Positions 41,531 through 48,184 of a stretch of 64,000 nt of DNA are shown piece by piece (positions within the stretch are counted from its first letter, which is position 1; every line of letters starts with the position of its first letter). The DNA is from Ectocarpus siliculosus (Eukaryota > Sar > Phaeophyceae > Ectocarpales > Ectocarpaceae): assembly GCA_000310025.1 (NCBI GenBank), contig FN649728.1, positions 7,164,704-7,228,703 of the forward strand. Direction: 5' to 3'. The notes beneath the pieces are model-generated. The model was given only the letters and a program-made list of their open reading frames with translations. It searched no databases and was not told the DNA's origin. A program made the translations under genes and the position numbers.

Positions 41531-42065
41531 CGATTTGCTTTGCGCCAAAAACAAATATGAGAGCGAGAGAAGTGCAGAGAGAGACACCAGTGTACTTCTG
41601 CACACGCAACAGCTATCTCCACCTTTAGGCCATGAGGGAAGCCGGCGACAGGGTGTTGGCCACAGACAGGGTCGTAGAAGGGTTGATGGGTGGTCGCGTG
41701 GCGGTCAGTAGGGCAGGTTTGCTGTGTAGACTTTGAAATGATCAGTCGTCTAGCTGGCTCAACTAGTCCATTTTCGGCATATTGTGAATGATCAGTCCAG
41801 AGAGGGTAAAATGATCAGCGAAGACCCATAGCTGGTATTTCAAGGGGCCCTCCATATGGAAACCGTAGGACTCCCCTGGGCTACGTTTCAATTTTGGTCG
41901 CTGGGGGGGGGGGGGGGGGAGATGGGCCTTTTATGTCTCCGGAGGGGACGTTTTGACCAAATCCCCGGGGTTTCGACACTTTTCGCGCGCTTTATGCACC
42001 GCGCTCGCGCGCACGGCAACCTACACACAGCCAGTTTGCGCCTGTGCGCCCGTATCTTGGCGGCC

Positions 42066-45000
42066 ATGTCTGCCACCAAACGACCACTGCTCGAGGAAGA
42101 GGGTAGTGCCACACATAGTAGCATTCCTGAGGTCTTACGAGGCGTTGATGGCATCAGACCTGTCTTCAAGAAAGGACGGACACACTGGGTTTGTCCCTGC
42201 AAGCACGACTTCAAACAAGCAGCGGGCCTGCTACCGGAGAACATGGCTGCCCACGTCGCTGGCGGAGAAAACAGGTGTGAGAGAGCCATACACGTGCTCA
42301 ATGTATGCGGGTGCCCGTGATATAGCGTGGTTAGATGCACTGCAAGACGAAGAGGATGTCGACACCAAACAGTACGTTTTGGGAAAGCTCTCGAGGAGAC
42401 GGTTCCAATACCGCAATTTCCGGCACCGTCACTGGTTGCACTCCAGAGTAATCGGCCTTTCGCGTTCAGTTCAGGGGGTGATATATCGGGTGCAACCTAC
42501 ATAAGTTACCACACCCCCTTTAATGTTTGGCGCCCCCCACAAGGCCCTTTACAGCAGTAGTACTTGAAGTTCGATAAAAAAAAAAGGTGCCAAAGACCAC
42601 CTTACCCGTACCACACAGCCGCTCACACGGTATCCTTATTTTTTTCTCGAATACATTCATACTTCGTATACATCATGGACGTGTCATACGTCGCATTAAG
42701 TTATCCCTTGTAGCGTGTACCTCGTGTCGAATAGACAGATCGAATTCTCTCCTAAAACCCATGACAGCTCCCAGCAGTCGGAGCAATCAGGACGCAAACT
42801 GCTGTCTGTCCTACACAGTACGACAGGATCCCGCAGTGCTAACTGAACTCTACAAGCTCTCGCCGCGTGTACAGGAAGTGGGAGAAGGAACGGAAGGACG
42901 CGGCGACTACCCCAGGCATCGCATCGTTCTTTGGGCGTCCGCAAGCAGAGAAGCCCGAGAAGCTCGACGTGGACACGGGGTCCAACAGGCCTTTGGGCGT
43001 CCGCAAGCAGATAAGCCCGAGAAGCTCGACGTGGACACGGGGTCCAACAGGCCGGTACCCGCGTGTACTGTGGTACTCTCGGACAATGAGAGTGGACCTG
43101 CGAGTGATCCCGCCGCCGGGGACGGCGCGGGAGAGCACGGGGGCGGCTGAGTGATGGCGGCAGCGATGCGGGAGAGTATGTCGGGACGGTGCGGAAGAGC
43201 AAGGCGGTAAGGTGGACGAGATGGAGCAAGGCAGCTACGGCGGGGGTGGCAGCGTCGACGATGTAGACAACAGCCAACTCCCTCCATGCCCAGCAGTCTT
43301 GTATGTTCTGCCCGACTCCAATCGACTGCCCGTCGCAGACGTCCGTTCCTTTCTGCCTGCATGGCAAGGGGCAAACGTCATTGCCATGGTCCTGCACTAT
43401 CCTTGAACGCACCGTGTCGCTGCACGTCCGTTCTTCCAGGTGGGGTTTTCCACATGCGCTATGGGTGACTCCTCCTCCATAGAAGCAGCGGTGGGGGCCA
43501 ACATCCATGCCTTCATGGCAACGCTGAAGCCTGGCAAGCATTTGTGGTCTCTCATGGTAGACGAGATTGCGGTGAATCCGCAGCCCCAACGGAAGCGCGG
43601 GGACGGCACATACACAGGCGACAACCAGGTGAATACATTTGCACGCAACTCTGGAAGCAGTATTTCGCGATCGTAGCCCCCAAAATCGAGTTGAAACAAG
43701 CCTGTCACAAGGAACATTTGTTTCATATCCTGCGTGTCTTGAGAAGTGTGGAGATAAGGAGGTGAGCGTAGCTGTGGTGCTGCTGCTCACGTAAGGCTGT
43801 CGTTGCCATGAATTAAGATTTTGCTTGGAGACATAAAAGGCGCTTCGTGTGGTGAAGGGACTTGGCATCCTCTTCCCATCACTAGGAAAACAGAATGACC
43901 TACACTGGTCGCCCAACCACTGTTTTTTTTTTTCCCATACAGGTGTCGAAAGGGCGCGCACGCAGGGCCATTCTTGGCCCACAGGGGGGGGGGAGCTTCT
44001 GGGTGACCGTCTGCGGCGAGTAATGGCCTATCCTCCAGTTGTGACCGCGACGGCCTCTGTTGCGCCCGACCTCGAGAAATCGCTTGTGTCTCGTTTACAA
44101 TTAGGTGACCCTTTCGTGTCTGCGGCACAGGTCATGCGAGCCAGAGGCGACACGAGAACGTTGGTTCTGGCGATCTTCGTTGCCGCCGCCCCCAGGTTTG
44201 CGACGCCACAACCGGACTTGCACAGCGCGTGCACGAAAGGCTGATTCACCTCGTCGAGGTCCTGCCCGGAGATGGAGATTCTGCCGATGTAGTGCCGGGA
44301 TGGGACTGGGATGGACGTTTAATGGGCGAAGACATGACCCGGCATGGAACCTAAGGAAAGGGGGGCGGCGGTAGCAACGTAGGAACGAGCAAGAAGGTCA
44401 ACAGAAGCAAGACCTACTCTTTGTTGCCGGCGGACGTACACCCTGTGAATCCACCGAAGAACAAGAGACTAGCCGGCTTCTTCTTCGACCTGCCGTAGCT
44501 GCAGGACCTGTAGCAGCTGGTCAACAACGTGGTGGACTACGAAAGGTCTGACGCAGCGGACAACCTACCCGTCATTGTCAAGGACGAGTCGGCTGCATTC
44601 CCGTTTAAGCTTAGTCTCATGAAGAACGTTGGGGCCTCTGCGAAGGGTTCCAGCGTTGCTCTCACTAGGAAGCGAGGAGCGATGTAGACTGTCGAATGCT
44701 TCTTGTGCGGGAACACGTCGCTCAACATCACCTGCTGCAATCTCCACGGAGGGTGAGCGACCGTTTTTCCGTGGATTATGATGGTAGGTCACCATTGGGG
44801 CATATTTGTTTGCTTCGGGTCTTTGCAATATGCAGTTGTGGGCATACGGTGGTACCGTGCTTGTCTCTGCGCAGGCGCTCGTTTGCCTTCTTCCCCCTCA
44901 AGGACATGCCAGAATCCTGGCTTTCCCTTTGTCCACCGATTGTTTTTTACCAGAGTACTGATTGGGACACGCGGACTTGCCGGCACGTGCGCGGTCGCCT

Positions 45001-45343
45001 TGGTCGGGGAGGGCGACAAAAAAGAGGCAAAGGAGGTATCCACGCAGTGCAGTTACGCCCCGAGGAAGGAGCAACGCTGGCCAACGACGTTCAGTTGAGG
45101 CTGTCCTCGGCGGCAAAGTTCTACACCACGAACCCGTGCACGAACGTGCCTATGGAGTGCCCGGCTTGTCGTTTGCGAAACCAGACGGTAGTCGTGTGGA
45201 AGTACTGCATGCTGGATCTTGCCACGGTGGCGATCTACGATACCAGGTTGTTTTGGCGGGCGGCATTTTTTGAAGCCTACAAGAATGATTGCCGATGCCA
45301 TTCACAGCGGATGAGTATTGTCGTGCCGAAACCAAAGGTTTGA
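42066..45343 (+). pseudogene. BED-finger transposon-type protein gene, heavily mutated
   Basis: Exon 1 (42066-42302, donor aat|gtatgc) encodes MSATKRPLLEEEGSATHSS and a BED-like finger, HWVCPCKHDF...ENMAAHV. Exon 2 from 42875 encodes RKWEKERKDAATTPGIASFF, resembling the SFF motif near BED fingers of hAT-like proteins, then a 62-bp tandem duplication (42930-43053) that shifts frame. Exon 43440-43628 (acceptor ttccag|gtgggg, donor ccag|gtgaat) encodes GKHLWSLMVDEIAVNPQ. A long exon from 44196 encodes VCDATTGLAQRVHERLIHLV, GWDWDGRLMGEDM, KTYSLLPADVHPVNPPKNKR and ECFLCGNTSLNITCC in one frame, broken by TAA (44352-44354) and TAG at 44496, 44511 and 44685. Near 45120-45200 lies KFYTTNPCTNVPMECPAC then VVWKY, a Cys-rich signature I recall from uncharacterised fungal and stramenopile transposon-type proteins. 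The role as transposase is inferred. Confidence 0.6.
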
Positions 45344-45615
45344 AACGATAATAACAGCACAATGCACATCAACACTCGAGAGTAGAAGCGCGTCAAACTT
45401 CTTTGGAGGTGCTCTCAACTCAAGGCAACTATTTTTGATCCTGTTCTCACACGGTGTTTAACAAATAAATACTTCAACCCGTGGATGAATAGGTCCCTGT
45501 ATGTTGCTCACCGAACTTCGTAACCCTTGGTGTCGTGTGAGACCCTCAACAGGTTACATTCTCCTTGGGTTTGTATTTTGTGTGACCAACCGCTGGCGAG
45601 AAAATGAAAACAAAT

Positions 45616-47039
45616 GGGAAAACGACACAACAGGGTATACCCTGGTCGAAAAGCGACACACCTGGGTACACAGTCATTAGCAGCAGTAAATGTAATCATA
45701 TGATTGGTCAGCGCCCAATTTCACCCTGGTGCGTCCGAAACGGCGCCGGGTATACCCTGCCGTGACTACTTTCTCAACAACCATACCCTGTTTTCGGAAA
45801 TGTACCCTGACCTGACAGGAAACGAGGCCCTTTCATTCATCATTTACACCGCAGGAATCTTTCCAACTCCTTTCCCCCTCCAACCATGGGATACCAAACG
45901 GCGAATTAACCCGCCCAATAACAACCATGGCAACGGGGCAGGAATCAGTTTCCGCTCCTGCAAAACAACACCAACCATCAACTCTTCCGCTCTAAACAAA
46001 ACCCCAGTACAATTGTTCCGTTTGCAAACATGCACACGCGTACATTACCCCGTGGACTACTGCTGCTGGCTGCAAGTCTATATGCGAGACGCACGGGTCA
46101 CGCTATGAAAGCGAGCAGCGAGACCGATCCGGCATGGTTGACATGCATATGCATGTGTGTGCGCGTGTGTTGTGTGTTGTCTGTTGTGTCTCAATTGCGA
46201 TGTGTTTCTTGCTTGAACTACTGCTGTAGCAGCAGCGGTCACGCTTACCGCCAACCAAGCCGACCAACCAATCAATGTAGTAAGGAGACGTCAAGCTTCA
46301 GCGGGATGAAATACAACGCGAGCACTCTTTCTCTTCTCTACCGACAGGGAGGGTGATTGGGTTGGACGACACAGCAGTGTCCTGCCTCTAGAGTAAGGAT
46401 AAGACTCGTGTGTGCATGATTGATGTCCAGGGCGTGTCTGTGTGCGCTGGTCCTGCCTCTCTCCTCCACCCTCGCCGCCAGAACAGCGCCACACATTGGT
46501 CCCTGCATAAGCATGTCAACCATGCTGGATCGGTCTCGCTTTCATAGCGTGACCCGTGCGTCTCGCATATAGACTTGCAGCAAGCAGTAGTCCACGGGGT
46601 ATTGTACGCGTGTGTGCATGTTTCCAAACGGAACAATTGTGCAGGGCATTGCCCGGCCATTGTTGATTTACAGCGGAAGAGTTGATGGTTGGTGTTGTTT
46701 TGCAGGAGCGGAAACTGATTCCTGCCCCGTTGCCATGGTTGTTATAGGGCGGGAAGATTAGCCGTTTGGAATCCCATGGTTGGAGGGGGAAAGGAGTTGG
46801 GAAGATTCCTGCGGGGTAAATGATGAATGAAAGGGTCTCATTTTCCCGTCAGGTCAGGGTACATTTCTGAAAATAGGGTATAGTTGTTGAGAAAAGTAGT
46901 CACAGCAGGGTATACCCTGCACCTTTTCGGACGCACCGGGGTGAAATTGGGCGCTGACCAATCATATGAGTGCATTTACTGCTGCTAATGACCGTGTACC
47001 CAGGTGTGTCACTTTTCAACCATGTTGTGCCGTTTTCCC
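45616..47039. mobile_element. Foldback element, family 2, complete copy
   Basis: Left arm about 45616-46157, right arm about 46505-47039, inverted with respect to each other and ending GGGAAAACG / CGTTTTCCC. Subterminal sequence contains CAGGGTATACCCTG-type palindromes and CAGGGTA/TACCCTG motifs (near 45632, 45750 and 46905) and CACCTGGGTACAC (45660). The centre (46158-46504) is unique and CAGCAG-containing. There is no coding capacity. The left arm lacks about 30 bp (ATCAACAATGGCCGGGCAAT region) present in the right arm and in the 31.9-kb copy. It is nested within the candidate transposon at 41843-47412. Confidence 0.85.
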
Positions 47040-48184
47040 AAAACAGATCAACACACCACGGATATCCGATTTATCGACAGGATTGTGTTCCCACAAGAAG
47101 AGATAGGTCTTATATCCAAAACATTTTCCCTCCAACCATCCATGTTGGTCGGATAGAATAGACTGGTACACATATATATATGTGCAGCAGTAGGGGGGCG
47201 ACTTGGCCAACACCCTCCCAAACGATGTGTCCAACGTGTTGCTGTGTACTCACTTCACCGTAGTTGACCGCCTGACTTCGTCAGGTCGACGCTCTTCTTG
47301 CACACGGCGCCATTAGGGTGCAGCCTAAACCCCCTTATACAATTGCGCTGCAATCTTGGCCGGGGGGGGGGGGGGGCGGGGTTATACGGTTTCCATATGG
47401 AGGAGGCCCCCTGGGGTATTTGTACTTCTGTAGGCGATTTTTCACTGGTGGTGCATGAAAAAAAATAGAAGGCGATTTTTTACTGGTGGTGCATGAAAAA
47501 AAAAAGAAAAGGAAAAGGAGGAAACCCCGGGTTTTGTAGGAAGAGTTCTGCGATCCGTCACGTGTTTGACTCAACCTTACCCGACCATCCCGCCCTCGAT
47601 TAACTCGCGAGTTTTTGCACTAGATGCGCAAAGAAAGCCAGTACCCTGGATCGACTGCTGTGAGTCGTTTAGGCATCCTGACACATAGTCCTGTTTGATT
47701 TTGACGAGCCACCTCTCTACATACCACATGGCATGTCATCACACACACATACATGCAGGTACGGTGTGGCTTTCTCTCTATCCAACAGAACCGCGTGACC
47801 ACCAGTATCATTACGGTATTCGGATAGCATGCAGAGAGCCCACAGCCCGCACTGCATGGCAGTAATAGCTGTCGCGAGCAGAGCACAGGACAATGGCGGC
47901 CGCTGCCTCGACAGATCATGCAGAGGATGAGAAAATATCCAAGCAAGTTAAAAACTCTCCAACGGCCACAACTAGTCTCGCTTCTAAAACTCAGCAGACC
48001 AACCCAGCGCTGCGTCGTAACTAAATAAGCAGCAGGGCAAGGAACAAAGACCTGCTTGGGAAAGCGTGTGTATTGGTCTGAAAGGGTTCGTTCGGCTGCC
48101 AGACTCTCTGTTTAGCCCAGCGGCGCACCCTCTCTCTCTCTGTCATCAGCTGTCTGTCAGCTTCGAGGCTCTCTGGTGGGCGGG

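What the first reader, a model, noticed from the sequence alone, without database searches (positions are those of the whole stretch)
41843..47412. Candidate new DNA transposon: BED-finger gene framed by 17-bp perfect inverted ends
A 17-bp exact inverted pair (41851-41867; 47385-47401) with related flanks encloses one plus-strand gene carrying an N-terminal BED-like finger, an SFF motif, MVDEIAVNPQ, and a C-terminal Cys signature NPCTNVPMECPAC...VVWKY. The finger and ends are seen; the same Cys signature is, from memory, found in uncharacterised fungal and stramenopile transposon-type proteins with no assigned superfamily. If the ends are real this links that protein family to specific termini.
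Basis: partly seen in the sequence, partly recalled or inferred. Interest (0 to 1): 0.75.

Follow-up and report, generated by a model that had tools for sequence, protein, structure and literature searches.

The report
Unclassified P-like DNA transposon

Summary
The window carries a DNA transposon at 41841-47414 (5574 bp) flanked by a 7-bp target duplication, GGTATTT; five of five fetched empty sites show one copy of that 7-mer. The end sequence occurs at 46 places in the genome (this element's left end included); of 23 end pairs, 11 have identical 7-bp flanks and 15 at least 6/7, against 1 of 506 crossed pairs. The window copy is defective: 2.65 kb with the catalytic core is missing, and a 1424-bp foldback element is nested in it. 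Three other elements with the same Cys-signature protein also end in CAAGGG...CCCTTG with perfect 7-bp duplications; one (8191 bp) has a gene model of 12 exons open for 1,564 aa. Its transposase shows a DDE triad plus DxxH (the hAT/P/MuDR/Kolobok/Dada group). The D2-E spacing and local motifs fit the P superfamily best, but there is no THAP domain, no Pfam P-domain hit, and direct comparison with the P-element sequence is not significant. I file it as a new variant: P-like, finger-bearing, possibly its own superfamily. Nine paper searches showed no name for it; Repbase and published repeat libraries could not be tested.

The parts
41834..41840 (.). left target-site duplication GGTATTT
   Evidence: identical to 47415-47421; single copy in 5 of 5 fetched empty sites
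41841..47414 (+). whole DNA transposon, 5574 bp, defective copy
   Evidence: borders set by the 7-bp duplication and empty sites
41841..41874 (+). left terminal inverted repeat, begins CAAGGGGCCCTCCATATGGAAACCGT; a G-tract follows at 41903-41919
   Evidence: end pattern at 46 places in the genome
47378..47414 (-). right terminal inverted repeat; a G-tract precedes it at 47362-47376
42180..42278 (+).
42915..42962 (+). segment with the SFF motif; a 62-bp tandem duplication lies at 42929-43052
43407..43673 (+). frame with the first catalytic Asp (SLMVDEIAVNPQ, 43548-43583)
   Evidence: family profile match E 6.7e-18, profile positions 144-196
43742..43744 (.). junction at which 2.65 kb of the better-kept C211 copy (with second Asp, DxxH, Glu) is missing
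44757..45340 (+). C-terminal Cys-rich region with NPCTNVPMECPAC...VVWKY; the His pair that follows in relatives is lost at 45215/45216
   Evidence: profile matches E 7.3e-20 and 1.6e-6; 475-482 bp more in 3 and about 460 bp more in the fourth of 4 aligned relatives
45616..47039 (.). nested foldback/MITE-like insert, 1424 bp, arms about 559 bp at 93% identity, ends GGGAAAACG, flanks AAAACAAAT/AAAACAGAT (9 bp, 1 mismatch)
   Evidence: absent from 4 of 4 aligned relatives; ends and arms
47415..47421 (.). right target-site duplication GGTATTT

Best explanation
It is a cut-and-paste DNA transposon of an unclassified group. A member with an open gene model encodes a roughly 1,560-aa, multi-exon transposase: N-terminal Cys/His fingers (inferred to bind the ends), an RNase-H-type DDE core with a DxxH motif (inferred to cut at CAAGGG...CCCTTG and join the element to a 7-bp staggered target), and C-terminal Cys/His fingers. 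The window copy is a non-autonomous derivative that lost the core and carries a foldback insert; the 299-1439-bp end pairs look like further deletion derivatives, inferred to move in trans. Shown: termini, duplication, empty sites, and the protein lying inside such ends in four elements. Inferred: the fold, the cleavage chemistry, trans-mobilisation and the role of the fingers. Within the hAT/P/MuDR/Kolobok/Dada group it works most like a P-superfamily element.
For: Ends and duplications: (11 of 23 pairs 7/7, 15 of 23 at least 6/7; crossed control 1 of 506; exact 5-, 6-, 8-, 9-bp matches 0 of 23). Empty sites: (5 of 5 fetched; 3 alike well beyond the junction on both sides, 2 alike for only about 11 bp past it). 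Protein inside such ends in three further elements: C27:4217533-4225723 (TSD AGGAACT), C9:5832799-5837758 (TSD GCTCGCG, ends 24 of 25 alike), C30:3227790-3231293 (TSD ACACAGC, ends 23 of 25 alike). Open 12-exon model in C27, 1,564 aa; C27/C53 dN 0.35, dS 1.03. D, D, DxxH, E in 3 of 3 aligned cores. D2 to E: 226 (C27) and 235 (C53; 10 fewer with the next-best splice site) residues; P 228, hTHAP9 239, Galileo 227 from residue numbers in PMC8230255 and PMC4168063; Dada 176. Ordered P-like motif string present in C27 and P, 0 of 50,000 shuffles (pattern chosen after seeing both). 7-bp duplication also in Galileo, a P-superfamily element.
Against: No Pfam transposase model is matched by 28 scanned protein pieces, at E up to 1 or 10. 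hhalign of the 3-sequence core profile against the P element gives probability 0.1%; Smith-Waterman is no better than 60 shuffles, z -0.4, and P read backwards scores higher than P. D1-D2 is longer (115 in C27) than in P (73) or Galileo (88). Of the GTP-contact residues listed for P, only the D528 equivalent was recognised, in 2 of 3 sequences. 8 of 23 end pairs fail the 7-bp test by script, and 17 of 40 loci gave no pair. Of 7 further loci scanned for ends plus duplication, 2 had them. No fold of the core was modelled; no transcript was seen.
Confidence: 0.78

Rival explanations
1. It is a member of the hAT superfamily (hAT7-like): N-terminal BED-type finger, 7-bp duplication, DDE core with C/DxxH.
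For: Finger-like N-terminus; hAT families with 7-bp duplications exist in rust fungi (PMC12730594, passages); hAT shares C/DxxH (PMC9587614, passages).
Against: No hAT or zf-BED Pfam match. The Glu lies in a DxxExxFxxxR context like P, not in a hAT-type one (hAT context recalled). D1 context is DE(I/L), unlike hAT (recalled).
Confidence: 0.12
2. It is a Dada element (6-7 bp duplication, DxxH, long intron-rich gene; Dada is reported from Ectocarpus).
For: Duplication length; an 11-exon 1402-aa Dada protein with N- and C-terminal zinc motifs (PMC3706591, passages).
Against: In that paper no terminal inverted repeats were found in Dada, and those with clear termini sit in small RNA genes; here inverted ends are present and 20 loci gave 0 Rfam matches (some of these loci hold only about 50 bp of flank). 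D2-E spacing 176 in Dada, 226-235 here.
Confidence: 0.07
3. The ends are an unrelated MITE family into which a gene fragment happened to fall.
For: The 23 end pairs scored are 0.3-1.4 kb, too short for the gene.
Against: Four separate elements with the Cys-signature protein (window, C30, C27, C9), from at least three diverged families, end in CAAGGG with perfect 7-bp duplications (the window's right end reads CCAGGGGG).
Confidence: 0.03

Closest known systems
P superfamily (P element, Galileo, 1360, THAP9 elements)
   Same: DDE plus DxxH; D2-E spacing 226-235 against 227-239; DxxHxxKxxR and DxxExxF contexts; 7-bp duplication as in Galileo; termini begin CA (P end recalled)
   Different: no THAP domain found, Cys/His fingers instead; long C-terminal Cys-rich region; no significant sequence similarity; most GTP-contact residues not recognised; longer D1-D2
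hAT superfamily, incl. hAT7
   Same: C/DxxH group; finger-like N-terminus; 7-bp duplication in hAT7
   Different: no hAT or BED Pfam match; Glu context differs (hAT side recalled)
Dada superfamily
   Same: 6-7 bp duplication, DxxH, multi-exon gene, zinc motifs at both ends
   Different: no terminal inverted repeats and small-RNA-gene targets reported for Dada; spacing differs

Membership tests
Cut-and-paste (class II, TIR) DNA transposon | terminal inverted repeats shared by many copies | tested here: met
   46 places up to 3 mismatches, control 0; 23 of 40 loci with an inverted pair within 1.6 kb
Cut-and-paste (class II, TIR) DNA transposon | fixed-length target-site duplication and empty sites | tested here: met
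   7 bp; 11 of 23 exact, crossed 1 of 506; 5 of 5 fetched empty sites
Cut-and-paste (class II, TIR) DNA transposon | DDE transposase in an RNase-H fold | tested here: inconclusive
   conserved D, D, DxxH, E in relatives; fold not modelled; the window copy keeps only the first D
P superfamily | DDE with [C/D](2)H after the second D, P-like D2-E spacing | tested here: met
   against PMC8230255 and PMC4168063 (passages)
P superfamily | N-terminal THAP domain | tested here: not met
   no THAP match in the N-terminal frames scanned of the window, C27, C53 and C9
P superfamily | significant homology to P transposase | tested here: not met
   hhalign probability 0.1%, z -0.4, no P-element chain in the PDB profile search up to E 10; profile of 3 sequences, so weak power
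P superfamily | GTP-binding insertion domain | tested here: inconclusive
   D528 equivalent in 2 of 3 sequences; others not identifiable without alignment
hAT | hAT C-terminal dimerisation domain and BED finger by model | tested here: not met
   no Pfam match
Dada | no TIRs; insertion in small RNA genes | tested here: not met
   inverted ends present; 0 Rfam matches in 20 loci
KDZ | KDZ transposase domain; 8-bp duplication (Zisupton) | tested here: not met
   no KDZ Pfam match (that the library holds a KDZ model is recalled); duplication 7 bp against 8 bp (PMC12730594, passages)

The most novel reading that the evidence does not exclude
[quoted passage not shown] it would show that the P-type core is not tied to THAP domains or to animals.
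Probability: 0.4. Interest if true: 0.7.

Novelty: new variant of a known kind. Interest (0 to 1): 0.5.

Why it matters
It ties an uncharacterised transposase-type protein family to specific ends, a target duplication and an element with an open gene model, so that repeat libraries could classify elements now filed as unknown in this kind of genome (and, if the recalled homologues hold, in fungi). A P-like core with a different DNA-binding module would bear on how P, hAT and Dada are related. For comparison, the published Ectocarpus survey lists 51 unknown DNA-transposon families and no P superfamily, and curated mainly families over about 100 kb, which a group of low copy number could escape (PMC12477816, sections 5 and 15); whether this genome is Ectocarpus was not tested.

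Tried and rejected
Sequence-level proof of P kinship failed: hhalign, Smith-Waterman against shuffles, where reversed P even scored higher, PDB profile search, PF21787 in the own genome (its 14 control genomes also gave 0, so uninformative). Relatives in viral contigs and prokaryote genomes: pattern matches, none confirmed by tblastn. PDB search with the C-terminal profile: only a zinc-finger chain at E 0.14. AlphaFold on the window's own C-terminal frame without alignment gave pLDDT 30, unusable; no fold search was run. Five other long frames of the window have no Pfam match at E 0.01 and the window no Rfam match. The left ends of the C53, C130, C65 and C9:4145500 copies and the ends of the C24 copy were not found. 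C3:639567-643054 has two degenerate ends but, by eye, no 7-bp match. C340 and C211 show one end in the stretches fetched. The C130 copy aligns to C27 only from C27's second finger exon onwards. End pairs L007, L013, L017, L040, L042, L045, L057, L058 failed the 7-bp test by script; L013 and L040 show a 7-mer if a border is moved by hand, which I did not count. No call identifies the organism; that it is a brown alga is a guess from genome size, composition and intron-rich genes.

Considered and dropped: chance pairing of the inverted arms; capture of a gene fragment by an unrelated MITE.
Full report
Observation. The inverted pair is present and exact over 19 bp (41849-41867 / 47385-47403, read), within 26-bp arms that are 88% complementary. 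The 17-mer with at most one mismatch occurs at 17 places in the 189-Mb genome in which the window lies, two of them this element's own ends; the pattern read backwards occurs at none. A 25-bp end pattern with at most three mismatches occurs at 46 places, this element's left end among them and some being the two ends of one copy; control none; the counts are lower bounds. Sequences outside CAAGGGG differ from copy to copy, sequences inside are alike, so this is a transposon end, not an arbitrary dispersed repeat.

Borders and target duplication. I examined 40 loci (L003-L017, L038-L062). A script found a matching opposite end within 1.6 kb in 23; 17 had none. Of the 23, 11 have identical 7-bp flanks and 15 have at least 6 of 7; left and right flanks crossed between copies give 1 of 506 by either criterion; exact 5-, 6-, 8- or 9-bp matches are 0 of 23. 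The window copy, not among these 23, has GGTATTT at 41834-41840 and 47415-47421, hence borders 41841 and 47414. Its flanks, joined with one copy of the 7-mer, gave 41 matches in the genome, two of them its own flanks, most of the rest crossing the junction by about 11 bp and three by over 40 bp. Five places were fetched; all five read CATAGCTGGTATTTGTACTTCTG without an insert. In three of them both sides are alike well past the junction, in two only about 11 bp on the right. The element sits in a dispersed repeat whose empty copies remain.

State of the window copy. Aligned to a better-kept relative (C211), the window lacks 2.65 kb that hold the second catalytic Asp, the DxxH motif and the Glu; in the window a family profile of the core finds only the first-Asp frame (43407-43673, E 6.7e-18), and a C-terminal profile finds 44757-45340. 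It also lacks sequence at 45215/45216 that four of four aligned relatives have (475-482 bp in three, about 460 in the fourth), which removes the His pair that follows WKY in C211, C340 and C3:640k. An insert at 45616-47039, absent from the same four relatives, has ends GGGAAAACG, arms of about 559 bp at 93% identity and a 9-bp flank repeat with one mismatch, like a Mutator-type foldback element (label recalled). So the window copy could not move on its own.

Linking the protein to the ends. Searches of the genome gave 24 matches for the Cys-signature region (E up to 0.01, several pieces per locus, the window included), 4 for the MVDEIAVNPQ frame (E up to 1, the window included) and 6 for the Glu region of C27 (E up to 0.1, C27 included). 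Three matched loci lie in elements with both ends and a perfect duplication: C27:4217533-4225723, 8191 bp, TSD AGGAACT, left end CAAGGGTGCACAATTTTTTTTTTTCCGACACCTAACC; C9:5832799-5837758, 4960 bp, TSD GCTCGCG, ends alike at 24 of 25; C30:3227790-3231293, 3504 bp, TSD ACACAGC, ends alike at 23 of 25. The last two are 2 of 7 loci scanned in that call. Counter-cases: C3:639567-643054 has two degenerate ends without a matching 7-mer (by eye); for C53, C130, C65 and C9:4145500 no left end was found, for C24 none; C340 and C211 show one end.

The transposase. In C27, twelve exons joined at GT-AG sites read 1,564 aa to one terminal stop (splice sites chosen by consensus score, no transcript seen). 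Order of parts: two Cys/His finger-like segments, an FF motif and a C..C segment, a conserved stretch, D521 in VVILEIDEIA, D636 in IVLVASDGD, D677 in CFDLKHNLKRLRT, E862 in GTDALENLFAVVRT, then Cys-rich segments ending in PCTNVPLKCLFC...WKYSMSHHVDQEH. D, D, DxxH and E are conserved in all three aligned cores (C27, C53, C211), the last two being 66% and 36% identical to the first. C27 and C53 differ by dN 0.35 and dS 1.03 over 1420 aligned codons, as expected for a gene under constraint; dS is high and rough.

How it most likely works. Shown: ends, 7-bp duplication, empty sites, protein inside such ends in four elements (window, C27, C9, C30). Inferred: fingers bind near the ends; the DDE core cuts at the CAAGGG ends and joins them to the target with a 7-bp stagger; repair makes the duplication; deletion derivatives move in trans.

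Which superfamily. [quoted passage not shown] Residue numbers for P (D230, D303, D339, E531) and hTHAP9 (D304, D374, E613) are from PMC8230255 (passages), for Galileo (D327, D415, D449, E642) from PMC4168063 (passages): D2-E is 228, 239 and 227; here 226 (C27) and 235 (C53, or 225 with its next-best splice site). D1-D2 is longer here (115 in C27) than in P (73) or Galileo (88). Dada-U6_DR has D567, D635, E811; no terminal inverted repeats were found in Dada and those with clear termini lie in small RNA genes (PMC3706591, passages); none of that fits, and 20 loci gave no Rfam match, though some hold only about 50 bp of flank. Galileo makes 7-bp duplications, P 8-bp (PMC7776569, passages). Against P: no THAP domain, no Pfam match, hhalign probability 0.1% with a profile of only three sequences, Smith-Waterman z -0.4 against 60 shuffles with reversed P scoring higher, and GTP-contact residues not recognisable except D528. 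The ordered motif string occurs in 0 of 50,000 shuffles, but I chose it after seeing both proteins. I therefore say 'works like P', not 'is P'.

Literature. Table 1 of the Ectocarpus survey (PMC12477816; abstract, sections 5 and 15 and passages seen) lists DNA/Unknown with 51 families, Dada 1, hAT 4, KDZ 8, and no P; its supplements were not available. Whether the genome here is Ectocarpus was not tested. Nine searches for a named superfamily with such features (listings only, apart from the papers cited) showed none.

Noticed in passing
45616-47039: Nested 1424-bp foldback element with long arms, GGGAAAACG ends and a 9-bp flank repeat (one mismatch); probably Mutator-like, family not traced.
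   Followed up: partly
41731-41840 and 47422-47531: Flanks belong to a dispersed repeat (aatgatcagt motifs) with dozens of copies, mostly about 95% identical on the left side; the target of the element.
   Followed up: partly
L030 (C9:5832799-5837758): Third family with the same Cys-signature protein: 4960 bp, ends CAAGGGGGCTCGTCAAGTGCACA, TSD GCTCGCG; the core profile found nothing in it.
   Followed up: partly
L026/L033 (C211:14500-30000): Best-kept close relative of the window copy is split by an inserted element with a 1077-aa frame that looks like a Copia polyprotein by eye.
   Followed up: no
L028 (C65) and L029 (C9:4145500-4151500): Deletion derivatives of the C27 family: L028 joins N-terminal and C-terminal coding parts in one frame, L029 keeps only the 3' part.
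   Followed up: no
41903-41919 and 47362-47376: G-tracts lie just inside both ends; a G-tract is also near the right end of C27-family copies. Possibly part of end recognition or only slippage.
   Followed up: no
42929-43052; 47432-47507: A 62-bp tandem duplication inside the gene (98%) and a 38-bp one in the right flank (95%).
   Followed up: no
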